DNA from: Brachycybe producta
Taxonomy: Eukaryota; Arthropoda; Diplopoda; Playtdesmida; Andrognathidae
Reading direction: 5' to 3'
Assembly (NCBI GenBank): GCA_036925085.1
Contig: JAUPFP010000001.1
Coordinates: forward strand, 13,712,854 to 13,776,853
DNA: 64,000 bases
A program made the position numbers and the translations under genes. The notes under the pieces were generated by a model. That model was not told the DNA's origin, ran no database searches, and was given only the letters and a program-made list of their open reading frames with translations. The stretch's first letter is position 1. Each line of letters starts with the position of its first letter. Below are positions 6,945 to 63,165 of this stretch, piece by piece.

Positions 6945-7059
6945 AAAACAAAAACATATACATATATACATACACAAAACATATAGATATACATACATTT
7001 ATATATACATGCATATATAAATATATGTATATATATAAAAATATATTTATATATATATA
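6945..7059. repeat. TA-rich microsatellite used as insertion site by element A
   Basis: Degenerate (TA)n/(ATAC)n runs lead directly into the 5' LTR at 7060 and resume directly after the 3' LTR at 16391. The bases flanking both ends are TATA, consistent with a 4-bp target duplication, although the repeat makes the exact duplication ambiguous. Confidence 0.8.
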
Positions 7060-7628
7060 TGTGACGGGGTGATATTTTACTCACCTTTTCCACAAAATGG
7101 AATCGTCCTATCATCAATACACCTCTTGTACTCGCTGAGATGGATAACTATATCCATCTCTCTCTCTGTTTCCTTTCTCTCTTCTGCGTCCGCGTGAGTG
7201 TGATCTATGACGTCACTTCCGCGGGATTGGAATATTCTGGAGCCTCGTGTTTGGAAACGTCCCCGTAGAATGGGGCGTGGTCAAACACGAGGGTATAAAA
7301 GGCGCGATGTTCAAATCTCGCGGTTCTTTCTTTGCTTATATGACGCTCATGCAGACGCTCTATAAGCCGTCTGCTTTCTGTCCGAGAGGACCGCTTATTT
7401 TCTACCGCCAATTGTAAATATAATCGTTCACCATCCTCTGTACCCTTCCTTCTGAGGAGACACAAACTATCATATGTTTGTTTGCAGAATAAATATTTCA
7501 TTTATTCTGCATTTAGTTTCCTTATTCTTCCATCATTTTAACAACGATCGGCCATTTTATTGGGTTGCCTTCCGTGCTCTTTTGTGGCAATTATCTGAGC
7601 CCCAGAATCGAAAACCCGTACTGTCACA
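7060..7628 (+). repeat. 5' LTR of element A
   Basis: It is 569 bp, TGTGAC...GTCACA, and matches 15821-16390 along its length. It carries TGACGTCA at 7208, TATAAAA at 7294 and AATAAA at 7488, a normal U3-R-U5 order for an RNA polymerase II LTR. Confidence 0.93.
7208..7300 (+). promoter_or_regulatory. LTR core promoter: CRE palindrome, ETS-like site, TATA box
   Basis: A perfect CRE/ATF palindrome TGACGTCA (7208-7215) runs directly into CTTCCGCGG, an ETS-type core, and TATAAAA follows at 7294-7300. The same sites recur in the 3' LTR (TGACGTCA at 15969, TATAAAA at 16056). The motif names are established consensus sequences; their use here is inferred. Confidence 0.6.
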
Positions 7629-7651
7629 TTTGGTGGAGGTGCGGGGTACCC
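7629..7651 (+). other. Primer-binding site region of element A
   Basis: Directly after the LTR end comes TTTGGTGGAGGTGCGGGG. It starts with the TGG that would pair with the CCA end of a tRNA. I cannot name the tRNA with confidence. Element G has a similar TTGGTGGAGGAGCTGGG after its LTR. Confidence 0.6.
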
Positions 7652-7702: not shown

Positions 7703-10700
7703 ATGTATGTAAACAACAACAACACACGCCCCCCAGACGGTGATTCTGTGGGGGAGAGGGTTATTTTTAACCCACGGACTACAAGAAATCCTCTGATTTC
7801 TTTACGACAACCTCAAGAGATGGATCGACATCATCATCCTGAACTTGATACCGGATTTGACACACCTTCCATGGAGGATAATGTGAGTAATCAATTTATT
7901 GAAAGTCAATCTATGACACCACAAAATCTTCAGTTGGGAGGTTCCTCTTCTTTCGGAATTACCGAAAAAATGAGGATGCCTACTGAATTGATATACACAA
8001 CCAGCTGTTCAACATTAACAACTGAACATATCCGACCAAGTTGTGAGTCACTCAGTCTGCATACTTCTTTCGGAATCTCGAATGAAGGAGCAGCTGGGGG
8101 ATTTTTACAACAGGATACACCCACACAAACACCTGTTGAGTCGGCGGAGATGGGGGGGATCGATGTCCCTCTTGCGGCATCCGCATTGATGGTGACATCA
8201 GATTCTTCGTCACCAAGACAGGCTAGACAGAGTGTCTCCTGCCCTCCTTTAACCGTGCAGACTCAGCTTACATCTCACGCACACGAAATAGGGCGGGAAA
8301 ATTCAAATTCTCATTCATTGCCGATACAAACAACACAATCTTTTGGGCGGCAAAATTTGAATTTTTATTCTTTACCATCACAACTAACGTCCAATTTTAG
8401 GCGGGAAAATCTGAATCAACCTCCTATACAACCAATACAAAATTTTTGGCGGGAAAATCTCAATTCTCATCAACCTCCTACACAACCAATACAAAATTTT
8501 TGGCGGGAAAATCTCAACTCTCACCAAACTCCTATACAACCAATGCAAAATTTTTGGCGGGAAAATCTCAATTCTCACCAACTCCCTATGCAACCAATGC
8601 AAAATTTTTGGCGGGAAAATGCAGATACATTGGATCCTATGTCTCGATCCATGGCTACTCAACAGCAGCCAACACAAAATTTTTGGCGGGAAAATTTGGA
8701 CTCAATGAATGAAATGACCAACACTTCATTAATTCAATCCACACAACCAGAAATTTGGCGGGAAAATCAAACGACTGTCCCACATTATATGCTACCTCAG
8801 CGTACACGCTTACCACACACCCAAGCTCAGCGGATTCAACACCACATGACGTCATACTCCCAGTCACAGGATCAGACATCAACTGGGACTGTGCCTATGG
8901 CTGATGGTGGTATCCGTTATCAGCCATGGGGGGGTGTGAGGTCAGGTGAGGGGGGACTCAATACATGCGATGCAACAGCCGGGTTCTCACATTCTCAGCT
9001 TACACATGTGCAGTCTCCGCATTCATCAATGCCGGGACCCCACATGCAGGCACCTACATACACCCAGCCTATGCAGATGCAATCCCAGCCGGGACCACAC
9101 ATACCAGAGTCAATATACACCCAGAATATGCAAATGCAATTCCAGCCGGGACCCCACATGCAAGTTTCCTCATGCACTCAACCTGTGCAAATGCAAACTC
9201 AGCCAGGACCCCACATGCAAGTTTCCTCATGCACTCAACCTGTGCAAATGCAAACTCAGCCGGGACCCCACATGCAAGTTTCCTCATGCACTCAACCTGT
9301 GCAAATGCAAACTCAGCCGGGATCCCACATGCAAGTTTCCTCATGTACCCAGCCTGTGCATGCACAATCTCAGCCGGGACCCCACATACAAGCGCCATCA
9401 TACACTCAGCCTGTGCATGGGCAATCTCAGCCGGGACCCCACATACAAGCACCATCATACACTCAGCCTGTGCATGTGCAATCTCAGCCGGGACCCCACA
9501 TGCAGCCTGTGCATGTGCAGCCTCAGCATTTATCAACGCCGGGTTCCCACAGCCAAGCACCTTGGTGCACCCAGTCTGAGTCGCAGCAACCCTTGGCCCA
9601 TGTCAGAGGGACTGTAGAGGGGGCCGTTTATCACCGGCCGTCAGAGGGTAGACCTGCAGGGGAGGACAGCACGATGGGGAATAGTCAGGGTAGAGGGGGT
9701 TTGCCAATGCGAAACACCAATGAGCTCTCAATAGAAGAACTCAATAAACGGTATGGGCATCGACATCCTTTAGATCACCTCAAGCCATTTACTGGGAGAG
9801 GCCAGGTTACCGCATTCCTGGAAAAGTTTGAGGCCATTGCTGCCTTACATGAATGGACCCCCAATCACCGATATTTCTACATCACAACATGCGTCAAGGA
9901 TGATGCATGGGATTGGTTATCACGTACCAGGCATCGAAATCCTGGACTAGACTGGTGGGGACTCAAAGACAAGATGATGGAAGAGTTTGGCCGACCAGGG
10001 GAGAACCTGTTACTAAGCAAAGATCTAAAGAAGCTTAAGCAGGAGGACGGAGAACCCACACCTAATTTCATCCGGAAATTCCTGAAGGTATCTGAGAAAC
10101 TATACCCGGACATGTCCGACGACTTACGTATAGGTCAGCTACGAGAGGCACTGCATCCCACGATGAGCAGGGCAGTTGAGGCTGCTTCGGGGGCAAACCT
10201 AAAAGCCTTCATAGATTACGCAGTAAACATCGAATGCACATTGTATCTCGCCGGAAAATGGAATTTGAGACGTGAGGAGGATGAAGAGGTGGAGAGATCC
10301 TCAAGTCTGGCACGAAATACCAACCGGACTCATATTTCCCAACGAACACACTCAACCAGCAATAACTCCTCAGACAGTGCAACAGACACCTCCGGTGCTC
10401 CTACCACATGGACCGACCGGACGGGACCCGCTCAGTCGGACCGTGGGGCAAGAGCTGCCCCAAGTGATACCCGAAAAAGACCCGCACCGGATCAAAAGAA
10501 GGTGGATGAGACGAAAGCAAAATGCTTCCGCTGTTATAAGATGGGGCATTTTTCCCGAAACTGCCCGGATCGCAAAAAGGTTAATGAGCTCACGAATGAA
10601 TGTCAAAATGAGGTATACTCAGTCGACATCGTAGTGGCATCTAGTGGCGTGGAGTTGGCAGTCATCTACCTCGGAGACCAAGTCAGCTATGTACCTTTGG

Positions 10701-10726
10701 TCAACCTAATAGCAGGGTTAAACTAG
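7703..10726 (+). CDS. gag: Gag polyprotein of element A with two repeat blocks
   Basis: This is the 1007-residue structural protein of an LTR retrotransposon, expected to form the particle and bind RNA. The first ATG after the primer-binding region is used. Residues 1-190 are Ser/Gln/Thr-rich. About 190-355 hold 18-residue repeats around NFWRENLNSHQ. About 440-620 hold 19-residue repeats around QPGPHMQ. About 670-860 form the capsid-like domain (LKPFTGRGQVTAFLEKFEA, then DDAWDWLS and LREALHPTM). A zinc knuckle, CFRCYKMGHFSRNC, is at about 945-958. The ORF ends at TAG 10724-10726, directly behind a GTTAAAC heptamer, and the protease frame is -1. It is much longer than usual Ty3/gypsy Gags because of the repeats, and is intact. 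Confidence 0.9.
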   Translation: MYVNNNNTRPPDGDSVGERVIFNPRTTRNPLISLRQPQEMDRHHHPELDTGFDTPSMEDNVSNQFIESQSMTPQNLQLGGSSSFGITEKMRMPTELIYTTSCSTLTTEHIRPSCESLSLHTSFGISNEGAAGGFLQQDTPTQTPVESAEMGGIDVPLAASALMVTSDSSSPRQARQSVSCPPLTVQTQLTSHAHEIGRENSNSHSLPIQTTQSFGRQNLNFYSLPSQLTSNFRRENLNQPPIQPIQNFWRENLNSHQPPTQPIQNFWRENLNSHQTPIQPMQNFWRENLNSHQLPMQPMQNFWRENADTLDPMSRSMATQQQPTQNFWRENLDSMNEMTNTSLIQSTQPEIWRENQTTVPHYMLPQRTRLPHTQAQRIQHHMTSYSQSQDQTSTGTVPMADGGIRYQPWGGVRSGEGGLNTCDATAGFSHSQLTHVQSPHSSMPGPHMQAPTYTQPMQMQSQPGPHIPESIYTQNMQMQFQPGPHMQVSSCTQPVQMQTQPGPHMQVSSCTQPVQMQTQPGPHMQVSSCTQPVQMQTQPGSHMQVSSCTQPVHAQSQPGPHIQAPSYTQPVHGQSQPGPHIQAPSYTQPVHVQSQPGPHMQPVHVQPQHLSTPGSHSQAPWCTQSESQQPLAHVRGTVEGAVYHRPSEGRPAGEDSTMGNSQGRGGLPMRNTNELSIEELNKRYGHRHPLDHLKPFTGRGQVTAFLEKFEAIAALHEWTPNHRYFYITTCVKDDAWDWLSRTRHRNPGLDWWGLKDKMMEEFGRPGENLLLSKDLKKLKQEDGEPTPNFIRKFLKVSEKLYPDMSDDLRIGQLREALHPTMSRAVEAASGANLKAFIDYAVNIECTLYLAGKWNLRREEDEEVERSSSLARNTNRTHISQRTHSTSNNSSDSATDTSGAPTTWTDRTGPAQSDRGARAAPSDTRKRPAPDQKKVDETKAKCFRCYKMGHFSRNCPDRKKVNELTNECQNEVYSVDIVVASSGVELAVIYLGDQVSYVPLVNLIAGLN
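8292..8765 (+). repeat. Coding array with eight perfect GGCGGGAAA sites
   Basis: GGCGGGAAA occurs at 8292, 8400, 8448, 8502, 8556, 8610, 8685 and 8757, with a variant GGCGGCAAA at 8346. Steps are mostly exactly 54 bp (18 codons). Most copies sit in TTTTTGGCGGGAAAAT, which contains the E2F/DP consensus TTTGGCGGGAAA. The same DNA codes for the NFWREN repeats of Gag. Confidence 0.85.
9022..9510 (+). repeat. 57-bp coding tandem repeats in gag
   Basis: A unit beginning CAGCCGGGACCCCACATGCA recurs about nine times, mostly 57 bp apart (19 codons, QPGPHMQ core). Several neighbouring copies are nearly identical, so the array is recently homogenised. Hydrophobic or proline-rich translations in the other frames over this region are by-products. 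Confidence 0.85.
10717..10723 (+). promoter_or_regulatory. Candidate -1 ribosomal frameshift site GTTAAAC
   Basis: In the gag frame the codons read G-TTA-AAC and then TAG. GTTAAAC is a known -1 slippery heptamer type (equine arteritis virus uses it). The protease frame is exactly -1 and is open from 10645, so a slip here would bypass the stop and give a Gag-protease fusion. No downstream pseudoknot was worked out. Confidence 0.55.
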
Positions 10727-10731
10727 GGGAG

Positions 10732-11871
10732 GTGAAGACAGAGGGGGAACCTTCACCTGGCGAGAATATTGGACCCCCAACAGAGGAAAATTCTGAGGAA
10801 TCTGAGGAGGGAAGTGATACGTCAACTGATATAGCTATCATTGAAGCCATAAAGGTCATGAATAAATGGACAGCAGACGATCTACTGGTGTGGTATGACA
10901 TGTTGCAAGCCTACAAGGAGAATTGCTACCAAAACGGAAGTCGTGAAGCCTATTTAGAGACATCTATGAATAGTGCAAACTGTCTTGCCACCAGGAAGGC
11001 AGGAAGAGATCCGACAAAGGGCAGAGCCTGCTGCCGCAAGGTAATGAGCGAAATATGGGAATTCGTTAAGAAACAGTGCGTGCCAAAGGAAATCGGAGAC
11101 TTTGATGAAGAGGAAGGATCGCCCAGGATCACAGTAACCATCAACCAAAAGGAAGTTCGGCTGCTGGTGGATTCTGGAGCCTTCACCAGTGTCTTGTCCG
11201 AATCCTTAGTAAAGGAGATGGGTTGGGCGGTGGAGCCAGTCTCCACCACTCCCACAGTTGGAGTTGTGGGAGGCAGCCGACTCGACGTAAAGGGCCAAGT
11301 GATCGCCACCGTTGAAGTAGGAGGAAAATCTGTAAGGGCCTGCTTCATAATTATCGGAGGAAAACGAGAGGCCATCATGGGGCGAGACCTTGGTGGGGCA
11401 CTACATCTCATCGTCGAAATGAGGTCCAATAAAGTGTACTTCAGTGAAGCCATGTTGAATGAAAAAGTCTACAAACGATGCGTAGAAAGCTATATAAGAA
11501 GTGCTATCCAGGAGGGAGAAAAGAGCACTGCTACGGGAGTAACCGGGAAGACAACCAAGCAAGAGGCTGAAGTGAAAGAACTTTTTGATTTAAGGGATAT
11601 ACGAGCCTTATGCCCCACTACTGCCATAGCCCTACCGCTGAAACAACTCGGATACAATGAAGTAGAAGCCGCCAACGAGCTCACATCCAATGACGTAATC
11701 TTTGGAGTAAATGACAAGATATGCGAATTGGGGAATAAAGATAGATGGGGAGGAACTGTAAGCGACTGCGTAAACATTGTCCACATGCATCCATACCATC
11801 AGTGTAGGGAGAATGTGCCCAATGTAGTTGGGGGAATGACATGCTGGATAATCCTCAGGGTTCTTCAGTAA
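10732..11871 (+). CDS. pro: Retropepsin (aspartic protease) of element A
   Basis: This is the protease that would cut Gag. The frame opens at 10645, overlaps the gag end by about 80 bp in the -1 frame, and begins with an acidic linker. About residues 40-60 form a conserved block (NKWTADDLLVWYDML) shared with elements B and C. A Cys-rich linker follows (GRACCRKV). The catalytic motif LLVDSGAFTSVL lies at about 145-156 and the flap/second-lobe motif AIMGRDLGG at about 215-223. The last 120 residues have no family match that I can see. The catalytic triplet is DSG, while element B has DTG. There is no ATG at the start, in keeping with production by frameshift. The ORF ends without running into any polymerase. 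Confidence 0.85.
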   Translation: MKTEGEPSPGENIGPPTEENSEESEEGSDTSTDIAIIEAIKVMNKWTADDLLVWYDMLQAYKENCYQNGSREAYLETSMNSANCLATRKAGRDPTKGRACCRKVMSEIWEFVKKQCVPKEIGDFDEEEGSPRITVTINQKEVRLLVDSGAFTSVLSESLVKEMGWAVEPVSTTPTVGVVGGSRLDVKGQVIATVEVGGKSVRACFIIIGGKREAIMGRDLGGALHLIVEMRSNKVYFSEAMLNEKVYKRCVESYIRSAIQEGEKSTATGVTGKTTKQEAEVKELFDLRDIRALCPTTAIALPLKQLGYNEVEAANELTSNDVIFGVNDKICELGNKDRWGGTVSDCVNIVHMHPYHQCRENVPNVVGGMTCWIILRVLQ

Positions 11872-11969: not shown

Positions 11970-14819
11970 TTGAATATTAATATTTGGCCCACGAATGACA
12001 ACCAAATTGCAGGTGAAGAAATTAATTTGCTTCGTTTAGAGGAAAACTCTCAAGAAAAAGCAAGGATAATATTCAAAATTTCGAAATCACCGCCAAAAAC
12101 TTCATCTCAGAACTATCTTCAATCCTTTGTAAAAGAACGATACGGATTCAGGCAAAGGAATCCATCTGACGACAGAGGAGTTCTTGAGAAAAGTAGCAAT
12201 GAGGTGCGAGAAAAGAAGTTCCAACGTGGAAGGATACAACAACAACTCCACGTGTTTAACACGCATGGAGTTGGATTGAGCATCGATGGAAAAACACCGG
12301 TGGCGCAGGAATACGCCTCATCTCTACATAAAGAATTAGTGCCGATCAAGACGCCATTCTACTTTCGGTACCCGAACTGTGGAGTGGTTTGTTTCGTCTT
12401 TGCGGAAACTCTTTGTCTTTGTTTAAAAACGAGCAAAATTTGGATTGTCGTGAGTGAGTCTTCAAATTACAAAAAGAACTTTGCGGAAAACTTTACCATC
12501 AGTGGAAATATCATCCAACAAGTTTATTTTCTATCGCGAAGTTTTCTGTTCTCAGAACAGGGTGTGGCAAGTTTGCTTTTAACTGTGCGGCGGTATACGT
12601 CAAATTCACTTCCTGAATACGCGAATTCAACGAAGCTCATTCGGATTGGGGAATTAACTGAGAAAACATCGAACTTCCAGAGGGAAGAGGAACGGTTCTC
12701 TAGTGTGCATCCTAAAAGTGTGCAGCTTGGTTCAAGGACAACATTCAAGGGTTCGCCTCCCAAAGTCAACCAGGAAGTAATACACCAAAGAACTGGTAAC
12801 GGAAGCCTAATATCGATTTTAAAAGCAACGACTCAAATTAACCAAAAGATGAGTCGTAGTCAACGATACTCTGGTCGGGATCGAGACCGATCTGGGAAAG
12901 ATTGGCGACTTCCGGGCTCCGAAGGTCGCCGATCCAACCCAGGTTGGGATCGATTACGATCTGGGAATCAAAGAGTTAGGGTGCAGGAGATGCCCTCTTC
13001 AATCCGACCGATGCGATTAGAGGAATCCAAGCATGTTTACGAGGAAAGAGAAGATCGGATCGATGTTTCTACAATGGCCTTGGGGATGACGAGGGAATTC
13101 CGGGAATCACTCCATCCCTGTAACGGATTCATCCCTGGCGGAGCAGCTCCTCCAGGATGGGGAAAAGGCCGACAAGACGATCAACTCACAGATCTGGAAT
13201 TAGAAAGGGTGCTAAAGAAGCACGCGCTGGCCGAACGAGTGCAGTATGTCCGCAACGTTTACGAGCTTAGGGAAGCTTGGGGAGAACAGGAGGAGGAGGG
13301 TTCTTCGGGGACCAAAGAACCTGCCCCTTCAGTTGTTCCTGATGGAGAGATCGAAAAGATTGTACCGAAAGAGACCATCGGAACCGAACTACAAGTAACT
13401 ACCGAGAGTGGATCAGTCATTGGCGCTGGAACCGAAGCCATCAGGAAGACTTCAACGCAAACAAGAAGGGAAGCAGGCTCCATCACTGCCGATAGCAAGG
13501 GGCCCCTTCAGAGAGATCGAAGTGAACCTGGGCGGACCAAAACCCAAAAGAGACGGGCAAATCGACAAAAGAAGAAGGAGCTGGTGAAAAGAACGTCTCC
13601 ACCACCTGTCGCTTCAGAGGCAACAGCCTCGGCCAAGGACCCCGAACGAGAGAAGTTCAAGGCTCAAGTAAAAGAACTCCGAGCTGTTTGTCGGGAGACC
13701 CGGAATGCTGGAGTTACCCTGCCGAAGTTATTGGAGGATCCTAAGGAGCCGACGGAAGTACTTATTGAACTACCGGATGAGGATATCGTGATGAGGGAAG
13801 CTCCTCCATTAAGCCAAGAGGGGTCAGCAGAAGTTTCATCGGAGGGAGAAGAACCAATGGATTTGGATACATCAGGACCTTCCGGAAAAAGGGCTCCATC
13901 TCCGATTAATTCGGATGTGCACCCAAGGAAGAAGAAAAACAAGAAACATCCGTGTCACCTGGATCGTGACCAAGCCCGGGCCGTCCTTTTCAGGGCCAAG
14001 AAGGCTGGGTTCGTATTGACGTACCGGAGAATAGGGGAGGAGACTCCAGTGGAGACTCCTGTCATCCAAAGGAAGGATAGTTCGACCGCCACTGAGGGGA
14101 GCGAGGAGGCTCAACCGGATCCGTTTAGAGAGTATGCCATTCGAGCCACTGGGTCTCGCCAGACACCACCTCCTGTTATACCCTTCGATAAGGATCTGCC
14201 TGAGGATCACCATCTACAGCGACATCGATTACCGATTCGAGGGAAGGAGGCGGCATTTGGGGCGGACGCTGTTCTGAAAGCCGCTGACTCTCCTCGGAGA
14301 CGCTGTCCTCTACGTCGGACCACTGTCAGCGAGCTGCTGCTAAACAACAGATGGGTTGTCTGGCAGCAGGACACCAAAGCAACAGGGACGCTCTATTTGG
14401 GGTTGTACGACCTTGAGGAGTCGACTCCGAAACTACTTCCTCCGGCAGCACCGAAACGGTTCGTCGTCAACATCACTGTCTGTGGCAAGTTGGCAACCGC
14501 CATCATCTTTCCCGGATGTCACATCGTGGAAGTATTTTACTTCCCCGGGGAAGTGACCCTGCCAGCCTATAAGGTCAGCCTGCGACAATTTTGTGCTGCT
14601 AACTTCCAAAGAGGACAATTCGAGAAATATAGCGTGCAAGGAATCCGACTCCGGGACACCGAGGAGAAACTTCAGCCAGCCATACTATTCGACGCGGTGT
14701 TGTGTCATCTACAGCAAACTGGCAACACCCGGAGACATCTTTCGGACACAAAGATTAATGACCTCTTCCGACGGGACCTGAGGGGAAGGACCGAAAAATG
14801 GTTGGAGCCGGAACATTAA
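11970..14819 (+). CDS. ORF3 of element A: unknown protein conserved in RT-less LTR elements
   Basis: The function is not recognised. The frame is open for 949 codons; the first ATG is at 12849 (MSRSQRYSGRD), which matches the MSGRG start of ORF3 in element B, so the 656-residue form from 12849 may be the real product. Visible parts, numbered from 12849: an Arg/Gly/Ser-rich start; block 1 at about 77-140 (MALGMTREFRESLHP, then IPGGAAPPGWGKG and a helical stretch); a Glu/Thr-rich linker; a basic cluster; block 2 at about 260-300 (REKFKAQVKELRAVCRE); an acidic stretch (LPDEDIVM); a lysine cluster; and a C-terminal domain of about 170 residues from LLLNNRWVVWQQ to DLFRRDLRGR. There is no signal peptide or membrane segment after 12849, and no RT, RNase H, integrase or zinc-finger motif. 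B, C and D carry broken relatives. Confidence 0.8.
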   Translation: MNINIWPTNDNQIAGEEINLLRLEENSQEKARIIFKISKSPPKTSSQNYLQSFVKERYGFRQRNPSDDRGVLEKSSNEVREKKFQRGRIQQQLHVFNTHGVGLSIDGKTPVAQEYASSLHKELVPIKTPFYFRYPNCGVVCFVFAETLCLCLKTSKIWIVVSESSNYKKNFAENFTISGNIIQQVYFLSRSFLFSEQGVASLLLTVRRYTSNSLPEYANSTKLIRIGELTEKTSNFQREEERFSSVHPKSVQLGSRTTFKGSPPKVNQEVIHQRTGNGSLISILKATTQINQKMSRSQRYSGRDRDRSGKDWRLPGSEGRRSNPGWDRLRSGNQRVRVQEMPSSIRPMRLEESKHVYEEREDRIDVSTMALGMTREFRESLHPCNGFIPGGAAPPGWGKGRQDDQLTDLELERVLKKHALAERVQYVRNVYELREAWGEQEEEGSSGTKEPAPSVVPDGEIEKIVPKETIGTELQVTTESGSVIGAGTEAIRKTSTQTRREAGSITADSKGPLQRDRSEPGRTKTQKRRANRQKKKELVKRTSPPPVASEATASAKDPEREKFKAQVKELRAVCRETRNAGVTLPKLLEDPKEPTEVLIELPDEDIVMREAPPLSQEGSAEVSSEGEEPMDLDTSGPSGKRAPSPINSDVHPRKKKNKKHPCHLDRDQARAVLFRAKKAGFVLTYRRIGEETPVETPVIQRKDSSTATEGSEEAQPDPFREYAIRATGSRQTPPPVIPFDKDLPEDHHLQRHRLPIRGKEAAFGADAVLKAADSPRRRCPLRRTTVSELLLNNRWVVWQQDTKATGTLYLGLYDLEESTPKLLPPAAPKRFVVNITVCGKLATAIIFPGCHIVEVFYFPGEVTLPAYKVSLRQFCAANFQRGQFEKYSVQGIRLRDTEEKLQPAILFDAVLCHLQQTGNTRRHLSDTKINDLFRRDLRGRTEKWLEPEH

Positions 14820-15820
14820 AAAAAAAAAAACTTTTTATGGATGTGACACGAAGATAATTGATCTCAAGCAACTGGTCTAGAAGATATACTCGTTTTTCTT
14901 TACTTGTCAGTTATATGTAAAAAAAAATAATAATAATAATAATAATAATCTTTCCATTTCAGGATCTCAGGAAGGAGAAAAACAATTTCTAGTTAAAAGT
15001 TATAATTAATTCACTATTGCATTGGGAGGGAGCAAGTTCTTTTGTTAAAATGTAACTTTTCTTTACTCTCATTCTTAAAGGGGAAAAAAAATAATATAAA
15101 AGATAACAAATCTTTTAAAAAGAAACCAAAAGAAACCAAGTAAATCGTTTTTCTCGTTTCTAGAAAAAAGTTTTGTTTCAATTTAATTTGAAAAGGGGTT
15201 ACATTTCATAGAATTGCTGATCGCTAGTCAGGAGAATTTGTTTTTAAAGTCATCTCATATATCGCAATTTGCTTTTATTCGTTTGTCTTGTTAAAAAAAA
15301 AATAATATATATATAATATTCACTATAGGCACTTTCTTTCCCTCAGAAAGACTTTGAGGGGATAATCGATACATTCGTGCCTTAACTTTGTTTGTTTTGT
15401 TAAAGAAAAAAATTGAGACAAGTCCATGGTTACTGTTTTTGTTTTAAAAAAAAAAATAATATGTAAATTTTATTCGTTGAAATTACAAGTTGACTCTTAA
15501 AAAAAATGGATTCTAGCCAGGTGTGGGCCAGGGATGGTGGTAACCATTAGCCCAGGCCCTGTCTGACCGGGTTCCACTCGAAAAAGAGAATATCTGTAAA
15601 AAAAAAAGTGTGTTAATTATTGTTTGTGTCTCCCAGGGTTAGGAATCCGGAAATTTGCCTGATATTCCAATTCATTGTTCATTCCAAAAACAATCATCAA
15701 CCTGTGATAGCTTTTTCTCTTCCTTTCTGTTTTTTTTGGGGGTTATAATAATAACGAAACGCAATATATTCTACATGTAAATCGAAGCTCGGGGACGTGC
15801 TTCGCTTTAGTTGGGGGGAA
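14820..15820 (+). other. 3' noncoding region and polypurine tract of element A
   Basis: About 1 kb of A/T-rich DNA with several short poly-A runs and no ORF. A TCTTTCCATTTCAG run at 14949-14962 resembles a 3' splice site. The last ten bases, TTGGGGGGAA (15811-15820), are the polypurine tract next to the 3' LTR. Confidence 0.7.
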
Positions 15821-16390
15821 TGTGACGGGGTGATATTTTACTCACCTTTTCCACAAAATGGAATCGTCCTATCATCAATACACCTCTTGTACTCGCTGAG
15901 ATGGATAACTATATCCATCTCTCTCTCTGTTTCCTTTCTCTCTTCTGCGTCCGCGTGAGTGTGATCTATGACGTCACTTCCGCGGGATTGGAATATTCTG
16001 GAGCCTCGTGTTTGGAAACGTCCCCGTAGAATGGGGGCGTGGTCAAACACGAGGGTATAAAAGGCGCGATGTTCAAATCTCGCGGTTCTTTCTTTGCTTA
16101 TATGACGCTCATGCAGACGCTCTATAAGCCATCTGCTTTCTGTCCGAGAGGACCGCTTATTTTCTACCGCCAATTGTAAATATAATCGTTCACCATCCTC
16201 TGTACCCTTCCTTCTGAGGAGACACAAACTATCATATGTTTGTTTGCAGAATAAATATTTCATTTATTCTGCATTTAGTTTCCTTATTCTTCCATCATTT
16301 TAACAACGATCGGCCATTTTATTGGGTTGCCTTCCGTGCTCTTTTGTGGCAATTATCTGAGCCCCAGAATCGAAAACCCGTACTGTCACA
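15821..16390 (+). repeat. 3' LTR of element A
   Basis: It is 570 bp and the same as 7060-7628 except for one extra G in the GGGGG run near 16034 and a G-to-A change near 16131. The flanking TATA after 16390 matches the TATA before 7060. Confidence 0.93.
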
Positions 16391-16397
16391 TATATAA

Positions 16398-19339: not shown

Positions 19340-20748
19340 GTGGCCCAGCTCATTAGCGATCGGTTCACACCAAACCGACCAACCACACCACAGTGGACAT
19401 GCACACAATGTCGTGACAATGATTCCGACGCCTCTGCAACCTCTTTTTATGGTTACAGAGAGTCCTACGTTCCGCATCGTGATCGTCACGACAGACACTA
19501 TACACCACGTCATCTACCACAAAACCCTGACTGGCAGTACACTCCACAATTGCGTCGAGACCAGTCAGATGGCTTAAACTGTAGAGACAAGCATGCGGAA
19601 CAACCGTGCGCACTACCGGCTATGACACGAGCTCACTCTCCACAATCTCTTGCCCAGGCTGCACGTAGTGGCCGTCACTCGGCTCCTCCGGAACAGCAGC
19701 AGGGTAGGGCTACAAACCAGGACCCGACACAAGACACTTCAGTATATGCGCCGCAATTTCAACCGCAATGGGCAGCACTGATGCCCACTGGGATGTCTAA
19801 CGTCCAAGACGGTGTTTACAGACCAGCCCCCAGAGAGAACTCAGTCGAGAACTACAATAAGTTCAGTGGTTGCCACCCGGCCAACTCAATCCAGAAATTT
19901 GAGGGATTGACAGGTTTCAGGCCCTTCCTGGAAGAATTCGAGGAAGTGGCCCACCTGTACGACTGGACCGACTGCCACAAAAAAGAGTATCTTACTGGGC
20001 GCTTCACCGTGGCCGCCCGTACGTGGTTGAGCAAACTGAAGTATGAATGCCGGGGCATTTCTTGCGCCCAGCTGAGAGTACAGATGGTGGAAACGTCAGG
20101 GAAACTGAACGAACTATCCACCTTGGAAAAACAGTATATTGAGATGCTCCAAGCAGAAGGCGAGAGTACACAGGCTTTCATCTGGAAGTTTATGGCACTC
20201 GGAGACCGTGTTTACCTGTATATGGCCGATCAGTGCATATAAGTCAGTTGCGTCGTGCTCTACATCCGACCATTCAGGGCGCCGTCCATCACGCACAAAC
20301 TACATCGTTCAAAGATTTCGCAAACGCCATCGTCAATATGGAGGTGGTCTTGATCTCCTTGAATCAATGGCCGATGGGACCGAAAACTGCATCTGATCCA
20401 CATGATGGTAAAAGAGCATCGAAGACCGACAAGGAGCAGGCGGTAACCGCCGGCTCTAAGGACAACACCCATTATTCTAGGAACAATAAAAAGCCGCACC
20501 AAACTGCTACTACCAACTCGGGGCGACACTCAGCAGCAAGCACCCAGACAGACACCACTCACATGTTCGACAAGAGCAAGTCGACGTGCTACAACTGTGG
20601 GAAGTTGGGGCATTTTCTTCGTGAGTGCCGCCAGCCGAAGAAGAAAATCACCATCAAGCAGTTTGGGGAACCGATTACGACGCCCAGGAGGAAGTGCCTG
20701 AAGCGGATGTTATCACTAAAAAATGGAGCTGAGTTCACTTTAATCTGA
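19340..20748 (+). pseudogene. gag: Gag of element B, one frameshift
   Basis: The N-terminal half is low-complexity (His/Gln/Arg/Pro-rich). The capsid-like domain then aligns with element A: FEGLTGFRPFLEEFEEVA, AARTWLSKL, LEKQYIEMLQAEGESTQAF, and after a frame change LRRALHPTIQGAV. A zinc knuckle CYNCGKLGHFLREC is near 20590-20631. The frame changes at about 20233, inside the capsid, so the copy is dead. No clear ATG opens the frame; the first codon used here is a GTG and the true start may be upstream. The end at 20748 is followed by the protease in the -1 frame, as in element A. Confidence 0.75.
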
Positions 20749-20831
20749 CTCCAGTTTCAGCCGCCAAGGCACCACCACCTGAAAAACCCGACACAGACAG
20801 TTCCGACGATCCTGAGAACGTACCGATTCAT

Positions 20832-22616: not shown

Positions 22617-24791
22617 ATGTCGGGCCGCGGATCCTAGAGAGGAAGTAGACGGATGTCCACCTCCTCCAGTGACAACGACAGTGGGAATGGAACGGCGGAG
22701 ACCACCGAACCTCCCTCACCAACTTCGACATATGACAAACGAATGCCGGGCACCACCTGTGCACCAACGACTAGGAGAGAGTCACCAAATGCATACTCTA
22801 GGTGCCGTATCTCCTCTGAGCCGGAGAATTTCCGCCGGTGTGGGGAGAAACACCTAAAGCCGAATTTTAAACACCCAGCGAACGTCGGACATGAGGGGAA
22901 GCCGGATACTCCCAGCAGTATCATCCCCTTCGACGTCACAATGTCCAATGGGAGGGGCGCAAGGACAGGATCGACATTAACACCATGGCCTGGGGTGTTA
23001 ATCAGGCATTTCGGGACAGCATCGCACTGGGACAGCCGCTTCTGGGTGGAGCCACCGCTAGAGGAAAGCGTAGGGGGTGGGTCAATACCCACCCCCTCGA
23101 GGATCTCCAGCTTGAGCTGCGGCGAGAGGCCGTCATGCAACAGGCAGAGAAAGATAAGGTGCAGGGGAGTAAAGCCTGGCTTACCTCCGTGCAGTTTGCT
23201 CCCACCTCACCGAGCTGGGTCTCCCCTATACAGGGCAACTCCCGAAGGAGGAGCTCTTATGAATCGAGGCCCATCTCAGAGGGCAAAGCTCCCACACCAT
23301 CGCCTTCACGTTCCCTGCCTGTCACGCCGGCCATATCACCCGAACCATCCTTGCTGTCTGCAACACCCCCGGAACCTTTTTGATACCAGGAGCCAATGCT
23401 AGAACCTGCCATGTCGCTCACCTCATCAACACCCGCCACACCATCGATCACGCCACCGCCTCCTCCACACACACACACCGATAAAACGCCACCAGCTCAA
23501 CACTGTGCCGCACCACCACATCAGGAGGGTGCCGCACTGCCACATCAGGAGGTCGCCGCGCCGCCTCCAAAGCTGCCATCCATAGTGGTAATTCCCAGAC
23601 CCATCAACATGAAAGCTTCTACTAAGAGAGCCTCAGTGGGCCCGTAAGGACCACCACTCTCCTCCACGTTTTCATCGAAGTGCCTCTCTTCACCTCGTGA
23701 CTCACATCCCCGATGCCAACCCGATGCAAGAAGTCAACAGGAGCAACCTGGCTCCTTCCAATGTGGCCCTCCGCCACGTGACGACTTTAACCGAAGGGTT
23801 ATGGCACCCCCGACCGTACCTATGCATCCAACTGGACCGTGACCATCGCTGCGTGTATTGGGGCCTAACGAATGTGGCTACATGCCGCTCTCCTCCTCCG
23901 CCATCTCTGGGTTACCCTTCTGAGAGATCTTCACCCTCCGCCGATCGTGCAGCCTTTTTGAGGAAGCAGAAGGCCATTATGGACCTTCTGCAAGACGTAA
24001 TGCGGGAGGGTGGTGATCTGAGAGAAGCACTGGGTCTTCTCCCAGGAAGCACAAAACCAGAAGAGGCGTTGAGCAAGGGATCGGGCCTTGAAGCACGAAT
24101 GCCAGCAAGCCTGCGATATGGCCAAGTCTGCCTTGCGCCACGCTAGGCCCATCACGGGCACATCAAATGAGATGAGGCCTGCACTTCCTGCAGCCTCAGA
24201 GCCAGCACGACCAGCCGCACTGCCCGCAGTACCCCATACTGAGACTACTGTGGGGCAGTTACCATTGGATTTTCCGTTCCGTATGGCCACCTCTGGTGAG
24301 CGACTCCTTAACAACCGGTGGGTCACTTGGCAGCACGAAGTATGCTATGCCAACACCCTCTACATGGGACACTTCGACCTGGAGAAAGGGTTCCCTCGAC
24401 TGGACCTCCCACCATGGGAGCGATATATCGTGGGGCTCTCCTGCCAGGCGAGCATCCTCATCACAATCATGTTCCCGAACCGGAGGATCGCCGAAACCCT
24501 GAGCTTCGCGGGGATGCCGTCGACACAGCCACGTCCGCCCTTCTGAAGGCTTTCATTAAATAAGTCTTCAGGCTCCCGGATGGAAAGACCTTCCGCACTA
24601 GTCGTCTTCACATCCCGGAACTGAATCCCCGCTACAGGATCGCCATTCTGTGGGACATCGCCTGGGCCATCCAACACAACAAGCAGTCCTCTAGGAAGAT
24701 CATCGGGGACGGGGACATCCATAATATCTTTCACCGGGACCTGCTGGACGACCAGGGTGAGTGGCTCTCTGCTACCGCCTCTCAACGATGA
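22617..24791 (+). pseudogene. ORF3 of element B, broken
   Basis: The start MSGRGS at 22617 is followed by a TAG after six codons. Downstream the conserved parts appear in changing frames: block 1 at about 22985 (MAWGVNQAFRDSI, then LEDLQLELRREAVMQQAE), a Pro/Ser/Thr-rich linker, block 2 at about 23945 (FLRKQKAIMDLLQDVMREGG), an ALRHARPI segment, and the C-terminal domain from about 24297 (LLNNRWVTWQ, TLYMGHFDLEKGFPRLDL, IPELNPRYRIAIL, NIFHRDLLDDQGEW). Stops and frameshifts near 22632, 23383, 24146 and 24540 disable it. It aligns block for block with ORF3 of element A and, more closely, with element C. Function unknown. Confidence 0.7.
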
Positions 24792-28040: not shown

Positions 28041-28074
28041 GAGGAAATTCCTTGGCCCGAACTGAAGAGTACAG

Positions 28075-28902
28075 ATGGTGGACACGTTCGGGAAGCCGAA
28101 TGAGCTAGCCATCTTGGAGAAACAGTATGCAGAGGTGCTCCAGAAAAAAGGTGAGAGCACGCAAGTTTTCATCTGGAAGTTCATTTTACTCGGCGACCGA
28201 ATTTATCCACAACTTAATGCTCAGCTGCGTATAAGTCAGTTGCGTCGCGCTCTACATCCAACCATCCAGAGTGCCGTGCACCATGCATCTACATCATTCA
28301 AAAACTTTGCAAACGCCGTCCTCAATATGGAAGGGGTTCTGCTGTCCTTGAATAAATGGCCGACGGAACCAAAACCCGCAGCTGATTCACCGTCGGGTAA
28401 AGGAGCATCGAAGACCGACCAGGAGCAGGCGGTAGTCGCCAGTCCTAAAGACAAAACACACTGGTCTAGCCACGATAAGAAGCCTAGTCAGACTGCAACC
28501 ACCAATTCGAACCAACACTCTAGAACGGATCCACAACCAGACACCACTCGCACGTTTGACAAGAGCAAGTCAACGTGCTATAATTGTGAGAAGTTGGGGC
28601 ATTTCCTCCGTGTGTGTCGGCAACCGAAGAAGATTGCTATCAAGCAGTTTGGAAAACCGGTCACTGACTATGACACCAAAGGAGAGGTGCATGAAACAGA
28701 CATCATCACCGAGAACGGCATTGAGTTCGCCTTGATACGAGTAGCGGACAAATTTGCCGGATTCCTCTTCCAGCCCCAGACACAGCCGCCGGAGCACCTC
28801 CTCCTAAGAAACTCGACAATGACAGTTCTGACAACTCTGAGGACATACCAGTCAAAGTGCTCGACCGAGCTCCTGCACACAAATGGACCTCGGACGAGCT
28901 GA
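28075..28902 (+). pseudogene. gag: Gag fragment of element C
   Basis: The open frame contains the capsid C-terminal half (LEKQYAEVLQKKGESTQVF, LRISQLRRALHPTIQSAV), a Ser/Thr/Gln-rich linker and a zinc knuckle CYNCEKLGHFLRVC. It then runs on for some 85 codons past the place where B's gag stops. Sequence similarity to element B is high throughout. The N-terminal half is missing. Confidence 0.75.
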
Positions 28903-33919: not shown

Positions 33920-34162
33920 AGCGAGGAAGGAGCGTACCTTCGGGCAGTCTCCAGATATGTGGGTATCCTGCATGAAGCAGGGGTGCCTCTGGCTAGGTCT
34001 GCGGACCCGGAAATTACCCGTTGGGTGTTTCCAGAGCCATGCCCCACACTGGAAGCTGTGCTTGCCCGGCTGGAGAGCTGGGTGGCACCTTTCTTCCCTG
34101 ATTGTGGGTAGGAAGGTCCAAATGGTACAGGCATTACGAGGGCTTCGAGCGTTGGTGCGCCC

Positions 34163-34672: not shown

Positions 34673-34712
34673 GGAGCCTCTGCTACTCCCTCCCTTCGGG
34701 ATACCAGAAGGT

Positions 34713-59345: not shown

Positions 59346-59439
59346 TATTATTACAAGCCAACTATTTTTCTATTATATTATTGAATTTATCATTAAAGCA
59401 TTCTTGAAAGTTAATTGGTTGTAGGTTGTAAGTTAGGTA

Positions 59440-60485
59440 CGGAGAAACCTGAAGGTTTCCTTCAAGAAATGCCCATTGGAAAACCTTGTGAATGCTGGGG
59501 AATGGATTTCATTGGAACATTAGTACAACCGGTTGGAGGAAATAAGCACATAAGCACAAGGAAATAAGCACAAGTAATGGTCTTGCCGAACGAACGAATA
59601 AGAGCATTATTCAGACTATGAAAAAGTATTTTACTCCTGCCAAGAACCAAACCGATTCGGCTACGAAACTGGATGCAGTTTTGGAATCGTACAACTCATC
59701 CATAAAGTTTACACCTTATAGACTCATGTTTGGATGGGAGCCTAGAAATAAAGTTGACACCTTAGTTCCAGAATGGCCAATTATTGTGGATAACGAGGCA
59801 TTAAACCTCATGGACGTTCGACAACAGGCGGAGGAACGCCAAGAAGACGAACTAAGAACAGCCAGAGCAAACCTGAAAGCAACACATGATTGTCGAAAGA
59901 AATACTATGACCAAAGGCACAAGAAGCCTTATGAGTATCAAAGTTGGTCAAAAAGTAATTGTGCGAGACATGCGTATCAGGCCTGGCCAGAACAAGAATT
60001 TTTTTACGAAATGGAGACAGGGATATACGATTGTCTCGAAAGTATCAGACACCGTATACCGATTATCGTATGGAAATTGAGCTGGAAGATTAGTGGAGGA
60101 CTCTGTGAATGTTGTTAACATGAGACCACTATATGAGACTTACCAACAATATGGACTCACTGTTCCAACAGCTGGAGACACCCTAGAGTTCACGGGTAAC
60201 TCATCACCAGAAGAAACTGAATCGGAACCTGAAAAAGAAAAGAATATGCCAGCGTTTGTCAAAAAGAAGAACTTACCTTCCCGTAAGAAGATATGTTGTG
60301 GACACTGCAGATGCCAAAATGCATGGATTGAATCATCTGAGGATGATGAAGAAATTGAAATATTTACGAAAGAAATCCAAAAGCATTCCGACCGTAACGT
60401 CGAAATTCGAAGAAAAATGGCAGCAGACGATAACCAGCAGCAATTCTCATACTTACCTGGCGAAGATGCGATGCAATTCACCTGA
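59440..60485 (+). pseudogene. pol: Integrase fragment and C-terminal tail of an LTR element
   Basis: GKPCECWGMDFIGTLVQPVG gives the start of the integrase core with its first Asp. A deletion then joins it to NGLAERTNKSIIQTMKKYF, the part with the catalytic Glu. The C-terminal region follows: YNSSIKFTPYRLMFGWEPRN, RANLKATHDCRKKYYDQRHK, and after a frame change FFTKWRQGYTIVSKVSDTVY. A last segment (60093-60485) is an acidic tail with a Cys/His cluster (KICCGHCRCQ). The deletion is present in both palindrome arms, so it is older than the duplication. Family: Ty3/gypsy-like by motif. Confidence 0.65.
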
Positions 60486-61062
60486 GAATATGGTAACAAG
60501 CCGAATTTCACCAAGGAAACCATTGGATTCATCAAAGAAATTAAAGGAATACCTGAAGAAACGATGAAAATCGACAAAAAAGACGCAAATTCAACGATAG
60601 AATTTCAAATCGAAGTGAAAAACATGCAAATTATCGATGAAACAACAAAAAGGAACGATAATATGGATGCTAGTGATGCCACAGAAGGAGATGATGTCCC
60701 AAATGAGGAAGTAAACAGAGCGGTCAATGACGCTAATGCACATAGGAGAAACACGTGGGCAGAGGGATACATTTAGTGAGAAAACCACTAGCCTAGCACA
60801 ACTCTGGACCCGGTCCTAATGTTTATCTTCTTCATGACTGACAACCTTGCCCATGTGTTGTGCACATGTACCGGCACTATTTTTTGGCATCTTGATCATA
60901 TCGACACTTTTTATGCAATAATCGGCCATCTTTGGAAAAGTTTTATTAATATCGACAAAAATCAAAGAAATCAGGAAGATTCAACGGGATGGATCGAAAG
61001 AGGTAAGAAAGAGCCGGAAAAAGACTTTTCATTTCGGGCTCCGAAATACAAATTTTCTTTCT
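60486..61062 (+). other. Spacer with one short acidic frame
   Basis: A 70-codon frame at 60564-60776 is rich in Asp, Glu and Asn and has no recognisable domain; it may continue the tail of the preceding pol. Nothing else is supportable before element D. Confidence 0.35.
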
Positions 61063-63165
61063 TTGTCTTTTGCCTCCGATAGGAGCCGTAATATGAAATC
61101 ACCACTAGAGAATCTCTACGGGGATGTGGATACTACCAGGCAGGGTTGGGGCACAGTGTCCGTGGGCCAACCTTGCAGGGTCGTGCCCACAAGCGCACAA
61201 GATATTTCGAGCAACGAAAAGACCAGCCAAGCTCCATCATTCCAATTGAGGAAGGGTCGAAATTGGTTTTCGACACTGCAGCTGTTCCTCTGGAAAAAGA
61301 TTGCTGATGGGTTGTGGACATGCGAGGCCACACCCAAGATGACGAAGCGCCAGGAGGCCAAGCGAAAGGCCAAGATATTGCCTAGTTTTGTCGGCGCAGG
61401 ACAACCAAATTTTTACCGTTCAATAAAACCTGGAGAGTTCACTCCCGGAGGGGCTGAGCCACGCCACTGGGGCAAGACTGGCGAGCCAGAAGGTACAGAA
61501 GAATGGACTGCCCATCATTGAGAATGCCACCAACGTCGAAACCGCCCACCAATTCCTCACCGTACCCTAACTGAAATTTGGGACGAGAAGGGGAATTATG
61601 TAAGGAAGAGTATGGCCCTGCGAAATGCTGAGAAGGCATATGCTGCATTAGTGGAACCAGAGGCTGCCAAAGCAAAGGCTCACCTCTAGACATTACAATG
61701 CTCCCATCGATTGTCCTGAAGCAGCTGCCATCGCTCCTATCATAGAACCGAGTCTGTGCAAGAACAACCCGAGTAAGCGGCACAGGAAGGCGAAGAAGCA
61801 TCGTGAGGAAGGACTTGCAGAGTCCTGCGATGTCCACCTCCCCTTTACTAGAGTCGTCAAAGATCAACCAATGGGACTCATCATCACTATCCAGAATGAC
61901 CACGAAGAGGACAATGACGTCCTATACATCGATACCGATGATGAGGAGCTCCCAGGAACAGAGCCTGAAGGAAGTGCCAGAGGAGTTAGCCGTGCTGCCC
62001 CTCCTCCTCCCAAGATCTACACCAAGTTGACAACTCCAGACCAGAAAGCAACCGCAGTCCCAGAGGATCCCAGAAGCAGCTACAACGAGCAGCTCAAACT
62101 CCTCATTGATATCGCCATGGAGTATCACCTCCGAGGACTGTCACTAATCGACCAGGTATATGAAACGTTTCATGGCGAATGTATGGTCCTGTATGATGGA
62201 AGGATAATGGAATACAAGGAAGCTGCCCTTTCGGTTGAGATTGCTAATTCAGGTCTCACAGAAGACCTGCTGGTTCGTGGAGTTCGGCGTTGGAGGCAAA
62301 TTAGGCCTCTCTTCGAACGAAACCGACCCAGAAGAGTCCAGTAAGATCGGAAGTTCGTAGCTTCTTTCATCAAGCGCCAGAAAATAAAGTGATGCTGAGA
62401 GACATCTGCCCTCGAGAACCAGGACAGCTGTATGCCGACGATGTTGAGATCACGGAGCCAAAGGCTGCCGCCAGGAGCGATAAGGAAGCTCCTGGGTGTC
62501 CTATGGCTACCGTATCGTCTCCTGTCACCATGGAAGCAGAAGTGAAATCAAAGGTCGAACCAGCGAAGGAAACAGGGACCATCCCAAAAAAGCAGTTCAT
62601 CAAGGAGTGTCTGGGGTTGCCATCAGGAACCCCCACGAAGTCCTTGAGGGTCCCTGAAGGCAAGCCCATTACTCAGCCTCACAGAAGTACTATAGAAGAT
62701 GAGACCATACTCAATAACCTCTGCGTGTATTGGCAAAGAAAACGGGACTCTCTGAGTAGGATGAAACACCACCCAAAGGGCCCAGGACATTCGTAATTTG
62801 CCTTGGTCGTCCGCGCTGTCTCCACAATACTTCTCCTCGACACCAAGTATAAGGAAGTCACGATATTTCATTATGAAGACGTCTTGAAGATCCAAGACAT
62901 CAAGGAAGGCATCCGGGATTGGATTCGGGCCTTCTTTCAGTGGAACAAGAAGGACAAAAACGCCATCAGGGGATGAAGAGTGTCAGCTCCCAGATTCCAC
63001 GACGACCGGCCTTACCTACTATATGATGCGGCCAACAGCAGAGCAGAGGGACGACAGAGTCTTCGCCTTTACAAGGGATCTGCCAAAACCGCTACCCTAC
63101 TGGAAAAGGAACTACGAAGCAGCCAAGAAAGTCCTGCCCTGGGTTGGGCCCGTATGGAATATTAA
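61063..63165 (+). pseudogene. ORF3 of element D, broken
   Basis: This is a fourth relative of the unknown ORF3. Block 1 is recognisable at about 61417-61490 (FYRSIKPGEFTPGGAEPRHW, then GKTGEPEG; compare IPGGAAPPGWGKG in A). An acidic stretch follows (DVLYIDTDDEELPG), then block 2 at about 62080 (YNEQLKLLIDIAMEYHLRG). The C-terminal domain starts at ILNNLCVYWQRKRD (about 62707-62748) and continues in shifted frames through STILLLDTKYKEVTIFHYED, IRDWIRAFFQWN and APRFHDDRPYLLYDAANS. Stops and frameshifts near 61521, 61850, 62344, 62796 and 62975 disable it. Gag and protease are not present upstream. The element's 3' LTR begins 360 bp downstream. Confidence 0.6.

What the first reader, a model, noticed from the sequence alone, without database searches (positions are those of the whole stretch)
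12849..14819. ORF3 is a conserved unknown protein shared by at least four LTR elements in one window
A (12849-14819), B (22617-24791), C (29639-30582) and D (61063-63165) share the same order of blocks: an N-terminal block (FRxSI/L, PGGA-x-P-x-x-W-G-K in A and D), a helical block (for example KQKAIMDLLQDVMREGG), and a C-terminal domain opening (L/I)LNN-x-x-V-x-W-Q. In A-C this continues with TLY-x-G-x-x-x-LE, an I-x-P-x-x-x-I-x-E strand, and a (D/N)(L/I)F-x-x-DL ending. I know no family with this pattern. Its kept position after protease suggests it does something needed for the element, such as recruiting a partner's polymerase, packaging or targeting.
Basis: partly seen in the sequence, partly recalled or inferred. 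Interest (0 to 1): 0.88.

Follow-up and report, generated by a model that had tools for sequence, protein, structure and literature searches.

The report
Persistent extra gene in split retrotransposons
An animal genome carries a family of virus-like jumping genes that keeps breaking into partner pieces lacking the capsid or the polymerase, and nearly all the kinds examined keep one otherwise unknown protein domain, which suggests that each piece needs its own copy of it.

Summary
ORF3 is real, but its position was misread. It is the last part of a Ty3/gypsy Pol region: in relatives of A elsewhere in this 295-Mb animal genome, protease, RT, RNase H and integrase precede ORF3, in three copies within one open frame. 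"After protease" in A-C results from loss of RT/RH/IN, at least three separate times. A-C are homologous far above chance, D weakly. The C-terminal ~180 residues had no match in Pfam, PDB sequences, IMG/VR or the protein database, are not a degraded RT, RH, IN, CA or PR by profile comparison, and lie in an ORF under purifying selection. Unexpectedly, two large recent classes are reciprocally defective: one (128 Gag rows, capped) has Gag-PR-ORF3 and no pol; the other (73 RT rows) has PR-RT-RH-IN and no Gag in 3 of 3 copies read. 0 of 128 Gag rows lie near an RT row; 72 of 73 RT rows are followed by an ORF3 C-domain. One class read has lost that domain. I infer, untested, a protein acting mainly on its own RNA.

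The parts
7059..7629 (+). 5' LTR of element A
   Evidence: 99.65% identical over 572 bp to 15820-16391; TGTGAC...GTCACA ends
7624..7648 (+). LTR end plus primer-binding-site region, identical over 25 bp in the Gag-less class (L069)
7703..10726 (+). Gag of A (capsid domain and zinc knuckle)
   Evidence: Pfam Retrotrans_gag 8.6e-7; zf-CCHC 0.001, just under its curated cut-off
10645..11871 (+). protease frame of A; its end reads as the integrase tail
   Evidence: Pfam Asp_protease_2 3.6e-10; the tail resembles by eye the integrase tails in L006 and L010
11693..11735 (+). place where A lacks about 2.9 kb (RT-RNase H-integrase) present in its relative on contig C86
   Evidence: blastn of L050 and L003 against the window; pol domains in L050
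12849..14819 (+). ORF3 of A, 656 aa
14277..14816 (+). ORF3 C-terminal domain of A (LLNN-x-W-V-x-W-Q ...)
15820..16391 (+). 3' LTR of element A
19340..20748 (+). decayed Gag of element B
   Evidence: ORFs; window 18598-21272 is 71.8% identical over 2770 bp to L070
20832..21500 (+). protease of element B
   Evidence: Pfam Asp_protease_2 4.3e-10
22638..24788 (+). decayed ORF3 of element B, in several frames
28066..28902 (+). decayed Gag of element C
   Evidence: ORFs; 28042-28993 is 87% identical over 959 bp to L070
29579..30579 (+). decayed ORF3 of element C, middle block and C-domain only
59415..60115 (+). integrase-like fragments upstream of D, by motif only; Pfam found nothing in 59546-60115
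60922..63162 (+). decayed ORF3 of D (N-block and C-domain remnants)

Best explanation
ORF3 is a third gene region of a Ty3/gypsy (Metaviridae) family in an animal genome. In the full arrangement the element reads LTR, Gag, PR, RT, RNase H, integrase, ORF3, LTR; in some copies ORF3 is a C-terminal extension of the Pol frame, and it has a methionine of its own at a corresponding place in all lineages aligned. It has an arginine-rich N-block, a variable middle, and a conserved C-domain of about 180 residues. The family has repeatedly dropped RT/RH/IN and, in one class, Gag, and the defective classes have multiplied, so these proteins are presumably shared in trans inside common particles. The C-domain is kept by every amplified class I read except one. 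From this I infer that it acts mainly on the RNA that encodes it (cis preference), most likely as an RNA-handling protein for nuclear export or packaging of the unspliced genome, in the manner of CERV of Cer1. Shown: anatomy, homology, purifying selection on ORF3, reciprocal defects, recombination. Inferred: sharing in trans, cis preference, RNA handling. The confidence is for the whole chain with the mechanism; the anatomy alone I would put at 0.85.
For: Anatomy: L031 (upstream of L010, contig C32) holds PR, RT, RNase H and IN by Pfam; L046 (upstream of L033, C41) holds RT, RNase H and IN; L050 (upstream of L003, C86) holds all four, ORF3 there having one TGA. RT and ORF3 rows report the same open frame for C32, C41 and C23 (2350, 2313, 2263 aa). 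Pol-less: A and C62; L032+L006 (no RT, RNase H or IN zinc domain, most of rve left); O type (L045+L039), Gag-PR-ORF3 in a 2097-aa frame; the 754 class (L070, L061, L074). Selection on 705-718 codons of ORF3 in four 754-class copies: dN/dS 0.15-0.22, Fisher p 8e-6 to 1e-10, 6 of 6 (non-independent) pairs. C-domain dN/dS 0.03-0.11 in eight pairs with a finite ratio, dS saturated in others, so the protein rather than the RNA sequence is conserved. Retention: 72 of 73 RT rows of the 1597 class have a C-domain row 2.7-3.3 kb downstream; 40 of 150 C-domain rows share one bit score at 100% identity. Reciprocal defects: 0 of 128 Gag rows with an RT row within 12 kb; no capsid match or zinc knuckle in 3 of 3 1597-class copies read; shared LTR stretches 94.9-98.2%. 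Arginine-rich N-block by eye.
Against: The P type (10 near-identical 2287-aa frames with RT; one copy read in part) has lost the N-block and C-domain, so the domain is not absolutely needed in cis; four more RT rows (C10, C38, C26, C2:3783689) have no listed ORF3 and were not read. In the 1597 class the N-block, the part I would expect to bind RNA, was not found, only the C-domain. ORF3 as a whole is not basic everywhere: K+R 112 against D+E 99 in A, but 88 against 97 in L033. No structure, localisation, RNA binding or transcript was seen. An acceptor-like AG near the ORF3 start is found in some lineages only. The C-domain taken alone in the 754 class gives ratios 0.13-0.44 in 4 pairs; A/L039 across lineages gives 0.29, and L006/L004 and L039/L040 show 2 and 1 nonsynonymous and no synonymous change. 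In the 1597 class the C-domain has too few differences to decide (5 synonymous, 3 not), and over the whole 416-aa frame only 1 of 10 pairs has p < 0.05.
Confidence: 0.37

Rival explanations
1. ORF3 is a structural or particle protein (assembly or maturation partner of Gag) that works in trans; pol-less elements keep it because they are the suppliers of particles.
For: The pol-less A, O and 754 elements keep Gag, PR and ORF3 together; in the L006 class PR and ORF3 were seen and Gag was not tested. The P type lacks the domain and shares Gag at 99.7% over 1129 bp with the O type that has it.
Against: The Gag-less 1597 class also keeps the C-domain, which a pure supplier model does not predict.
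Confidence: 0.25
2. ORF3 is an integrase extension that steers integration (as a chromodomain does) or imports the integration complex.
For: It follows the integrase tail in the same frame in some elements and contains basic, NLS-like stretches by eye.
Against: It is kept under selection in the 754 class, where no integrase was found, and as a separate frame in the 1597 class, whose pol frame stops after integrase.
Confidence: 0.15
3. ORF3 is a divergent envelope-like gene, as in Athila.
For: 3' position, own methionine, and pol-less relatives that keep Gag plus the 3' ORF, as Athila does (PMC2410132, passages). The highest Kyte-Doolittle 19-mer reaches 1.62 in A and 2.03 in L034, which is in the range of membrane segments (threshold about 1.6, recalled).
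Against: The peak lies inside the C-domain and is not kept: 0.99 in L039 and 1.40 in L041. The N-terminus is charged and shows no signal peptide by eye.
Confidence: 0.08
4. ORF3 has no present function; it is carried along and looks conserved only because the copies are young.
For: Most listed copies are recent and nearly identical, and C-domain tracts move between copies by recombination.
Against: Synonymous changes far exceed the neutral proportion even between young pol-less copies; between subfamilies dS is high or saturated while the protein is kept.
Confidence: 0.05

Closest known systems
Athila retrotransposons of Arabidopsis (PMC2410132; passages seen)
   Same: Whole pol-less families keep intact Gag, some also a 3' ORF (Env), under purifying selection, and recombination links autonomous and defective families.
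   Different: Here the host is an animal, the 3' ORF has no clear envelope features, and a reciprocal Gag-less, Pol-bearing class shares the LTR.
BARE1/BARE2 of barley (PMC3735527; abstract and passages seen)
   Same: A subfamily that makes no Gag is packaged in a relative's particles.
   Different: There the helper is, as I recall, complete; here the Gag-bearing partner class is itself pol-less.
Tos17 of rice (PMC3977881; abstract and results section seen)
   Same: Intact pol, gag missing, recently active.
   Different: Copia rather than gypsy; two copies rather than a large burst; no 3' ORF is described in the parts I saw.
CERV of Cer1 in C. elegans (PMC10309623; passages seen)
   Same: A Ty3/gypsy element with an extra nuclear protein encoded mostly in the frame of the polyprotein and needed for export of genomic RNA.
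   Different: CERV comes from a spliced five-exon mRNA and its N-terminal half shares peptides with Gag; I made no sequence comparison with it.
Additional ORFs of plant Retand elements (PMC11963269; abstract seen)
   Same: A long pol-to-3'LTR region with conserved proteins of unknown function, and some non-autonomous members.
   Different: Those ORFs are antisense; ORF3 is in sense.

Membership tests
Ty3/gypsy (Metaviridae) LTR retrotransposon | LTRs and domain order PR-RT-RH-IN | tested here: met
   in A itself RT, RH and nearly all of IN are missing
Retroviral envelope-like third gene | signal peptide and transmembrane segment | tested here: inconclusive
   hydropathy only, 17 copies: peak 1.55-2.03 in A-like copies, 0.99-1.40 in O-type copies; signal peptide judged by eye
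Degraded RT, RNase H, integrase, capsid or protease | profile similarity of the C-domain | tested here: not met
   hhalign probability at most 2.2% in six comparisons
Any known Pfam or solved-structure family | significant profile match | tested here: not met
   the best PDB line (SAKe6AR, E 0.004) has no stretch that passes on its own
CERV-type RNA export factor | spliced mRNA, nuclear, needed for export of genomic RNA | not testable with these tools
   no transcripts or cells available
Athila-type pol-less families | intact Gag plus 3' ORF without pol, under purifying selection | tested here: met
   the 754 class; selection was tested for ORF3 and a piece of PR, for Gag only frame integrity was seen
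BARE2/Tos17-type Gag-less element | intact pol, no Gag, recent multiplication | tested here: met
   the 1597 class: 3 of 3 copies read lack Gag; PR, RT, RNase H, IN by Pfam in one copy; 73 RT rows
Active Ulp1/C48-like peptidase (idea from the pattern of the C-domain) | profile match and conserved catalytic His and Cys | tested here: inconclusive
   no Pfam match and no invariant His or Cys; the planned profile comparison did not complete

The most novel reading that the evidence does not exclude
A naturally split (two-genome) LTR retrotransposon in an animal: one amplified class supplies the capsid (Gag-PR-ORF3, no polymerase), another supplies the polymerase and integrase (no capsid). Both share LTR and primer site, and each carries its own copy of a new ORF3 domain that acts as a cis passport for its RNA.
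Probability: 0.35. Interest if true: 0.8.

Novelty: new variant of a known kind. Interest (0 to 1): 0.62.

Why it matters
LTR elements are usually described as autonomous masters with parasites. Here two recently amplified classes each lack what the other has, and a protein domain of unknown family is the part that only one class read has given up. That makes a general question testable: which retroelement functions can be shared in trans and which must stay on the same RNA. The domain is also a clean target for structure work, and the mosaics show that ORF3 moves between backbones as a module.

Tried and rejected
Rejected: degraded RT/RH/IN/CA/PR; a special mutation process behind an island of synonymous divergence. 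In A versus copy C62 (L002), codons 476-600 carry about 13 nucleotide differences per 25 codons with 5 amino-acid changes in all. But the C62 tract is 98.9% identical to L009 and the A tract 98.1% to L003, so it is ordinary recombination. Disfavoured: envelope. Rejected after a check: my first reading that the C-domain is relaxed in the Gag-less class. The loose part is the N-terminal half of its 416-aa frame; within the C-domain there are 5 synonymous and 3 other differences. Led nowhere: three protein-database searches, IMG/VR (82 pattern matches, none confirmed), the first DNA pattern, a universal splice acceptor before ORF3. Limits: whole-genome searches score only the best candidates, so row counts are lower bounds and 'no RT row nearby' (54 of 70 ORF3 loci) is not proof of absence; the pol-less state was read directly only in the copies named.
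Full report
What was claimed and what is there. The window lies in a 295-Mb genome of 442 contigs at C1:13712854-13776853. Thirty-nine matches to Wnt, a family that I recall as restricted to animals, point to an animal. Element A is bounded by 572-bp LTRs of 99.65% identity, with Gag and protease by Pfam and ORF3 as an open frame. A profile built without any window sequence finds ORF3 in A (E 7e-215), B, C and, weakly, D; the reversed window gives nothing better than 1.6. The profile found no N-block in C and no middle block in D, so 'same order in all four' is only partly right. B and C are broken by stops and frameshifts.

Where ORF3 belongs. A search of the genome with A's ORF3 gave 94 matches, a lower bound, some inside open frames of 1,700-2,350 aa. 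In L010 and L006 the same frame holds, upstream of ORF3, what reads by eye as the integrase tail; Pfam finds nothing there. The neighbouring piece L031, which overlaps L010, holds protease, RT, RNase H and integrase by Pfam; L046, upstream of L033, holds RT, RNase H and integrase. A's own close relative on contig C86 has all four in a 1210-aa frame (L050), preceded by Gag sequence like A's. RT and ORF3 rows report the same open frame in C32, C41 and C23, 3 of the 16 loci that have both; in the others the frame is interrupted between them. Compared with C86, A lacks about 2.9 kb between window positions 11693 and 11735. In the full arrangement ORF3 therefore follows integrase; 'after protease' is what remains when RT/RH/IN is lost. 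D too has integrase-like fragments upstream, recognised by motif; Pfam found nothing there.

Repeated loss of the polymerase. Four pol-less arrangements were read. A and its copy on C62 are as above. L032+L006 has protease, then the integrase core from profile position 15 of 102 without its zinc domain, then ORF3, and no RT or RNase H; two near-identical ORF3 copies lie on C142 and C7. The O type (L045+L039) is one 2097-aa frame of Gag, protease and ORF3 with no RT, RNase H or integrase by Pfam; ORF3 has 4 near-identical copies in such frames and further groups in frames of 2089 (4 rows), 2082 (3) and 2126 aa (1). The 754 class (L070, L061, L074) has Gag and protease by Pfam, then about 1.4 kb whose longest frame is 131 aa, then ORF3. 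The stretches before ORF3 in two more copies (L077, L078) align with L061 over nearly all of it; L076, before a fourth copy, aligns over 1.46 kb and its protease was not matched. The junctions differ, so I count at least three and probably four separate losses. By coordinates, 16 of 70 listed ORF3 loci have a listed RT within 8 kb upstream and 54 do not; both lists are capped.

Reciprocal classes. The RT search gave 103 rows, 73 of them at about 73% identity, most in frames of 1573-1597 aa. One copy, read in pieces, has protease (L067), RT/RNase H (L083) and integrase (L062) by Pfam; its pol frame stops just after integrase, and an ORF3 C-domain follows in a separate 416-aa frame. No Gag match or zinc knuckle was found in 3 of 3 copies examined (C5, C12, C3). 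The Gag of the 754 class gave 128 rows at 99-100%, also capped. None of the 128 has an RT row within 12 kb downstream, while 6 have a listed 754-class ORF3 (6 of the 17 such ORF3 rows). 72 of the 73 RT rows have a C-domain row 2.67-3.27 kb downstream, and 0 of 128 Gag rows lie near such a C-domain row (71 of 73 without one weak row that I kept). The two classes share an LTR stretch at 98.2% (279 bp) and a longer 3' stretch at 94.9% (925 bp), and a leader at 81.7% (514 bp); the 25 bp across the LTR end and primer site of A recur exactly in the Gag-less class. A second complementary pair is likely. The P type (2287-aa frames, 10 near-identical rows, one copy read) has Gag and protease by Pfam and RT/RNase H; its integrase region was not read. 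It has lost ORF3's N-block and C-domain. It shares leader, Gag and protease at 99.5-99.7% and the 3' end at 96.5% with the O type, which has ORF3 and no pol.

Selection. The C-domain has dN/dS 0.03-0.11 in eight pairs with a finite ratio inside or between near subfamilies, and saturated dS in other pairs. Against this, A/L039 across distant lineages gives 0.29, and the very young pairs L006/L004 and L039/L040 show 2 and 1 nonsynonymous changes and no synonymous one. Inside the pol-less 754 class, four copies give dN/dS 0.15-0.22 over 705-718 codons of ORF3 with Fisher p from 8e-6 to 1e-10 in 6 of 6 pairs, which are not independent; the C-domain alone gives 0.13-0.44 in the 4 pairs tested. RT in five copies of the 1597 class is also constrained (8 of 10 pairs p < 0.01). 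In that class the C-domain shows 5 synonymous and 3 other changes, too few to decide, although 40 of the 150 C-domain rows share one bit score at 100% identity. Over the whole 416-aa frame only 1 of 10 pairs has p < 0.05.

Recombination. A and C62 differ by 7 nucleotides over the first 325 codons of ORF3 and by about 13 per 25 codons over codons 476-600, with 5 amino-acid changes there; each tract has a close relative elsewhere. The O-type groups 2097 and 2082 are almost identical over the end of Gag, protease and most of the spacer, while their ORF3s are 69% identical; over the aligned 910 codons with the diverged end of the spacer dN/dS is 0.76, so the spacer is not kept as protein. ORF3 therefore moves as a module, and dN/dS between subfamilies cannot be assigned to the pol-less state; only the 754-class test can.

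What the C-domain is. 34 columns are invariant among ten diverse members of the last ~300 residues, 33 of them in or next to the C-domain, none a His or Cys. There is no Pfam match, no PDB-sequence match with a stretch that passes on its own, no relative in the protein database or confirmed in IMG/VR, and no profile similarity to the element's own enzymes or capsid. These collections may hold few animal retroelements, so absence there does not make the family unique to this genome. Hydropathy gives no membrane segment that is kept across lineages.

How it most likely works. The C-domain survives loss of polymerase and loss of capsid and is missing from one class read; four more RT rows without a listed ORF3 were not read. 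A function that is easily supplied in trans should be lost as readily as the polymerase was, so I infer cis preference. With an arginine-rich N-block, handling of its own RNA (export or packaging) is my first choice, by analogy with CERV of Cer1, whose loss blocks export of genomic RNA (PMC10309623, passages). The P type, the missing N-block in the 1597 class and the acidic overall charge of ORF3 in the C41 lineage count against a strict version.

Known parallels. Athila has pol-less Gag-Env families under purifying selection and recombinants (PMC2410132, passages). BARE2 uses BARE1 Gag (PMC3735527, passages). Tos17 lacks gag (PMC3977881, results section). A deer-mouse study of nonautonomous ERVs, some mobilised in trans, was seen in passages (PMC10089650). 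What I did not find in print is a pair of amplified classes in which each lacks what the other has. That rests on the searches in an open-access library, of which 89 and 92 returned no paper and the others were seen as listings only apart from the papers named, so it is weak evidence.

Noticed in passing
G000:C11:3206441-3207643: An RT row of the Gag-less class lies in an open frame of 5498 aa, far longer than the others; not read.
   Followed up: no
L060:2761-3264: Near one Gag-less element an open frame resembles, from memory only, the small basic capsid-associated proteins of Polinton/Maverick elements.
   Followed up: no
window 58017-59632: A nest of direct and inverted repeats (best arms 97-98% identical) lies at the integrase-like region of D.
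   Followed up: no
window 8970-9578: Tandem repeats of about 57 bp inside the Gag of A.
   Followed up: no
window 10645-10726: Gag and protease frames of A overlap out of phase; L031 has an in-phase slippery heptamer in the same overlap and the scan found none in A. O and P types read Gag and protease in one frame.
   Followed up: partly
window 32549-38163: A separate decayed Ty3-type element with RT and integrase, Gag-like sequence and a zinc knuckle, and no convincing ORF3 match.
   Followed up: partly
G000:C38:702841, C26:602294, C10:3474435: Three RT rows of the A-like lineage (two in frames of about 1795 aa) have no listed ORF3 nearby: a possible second class without ORF3, not read.
   Followed up: no
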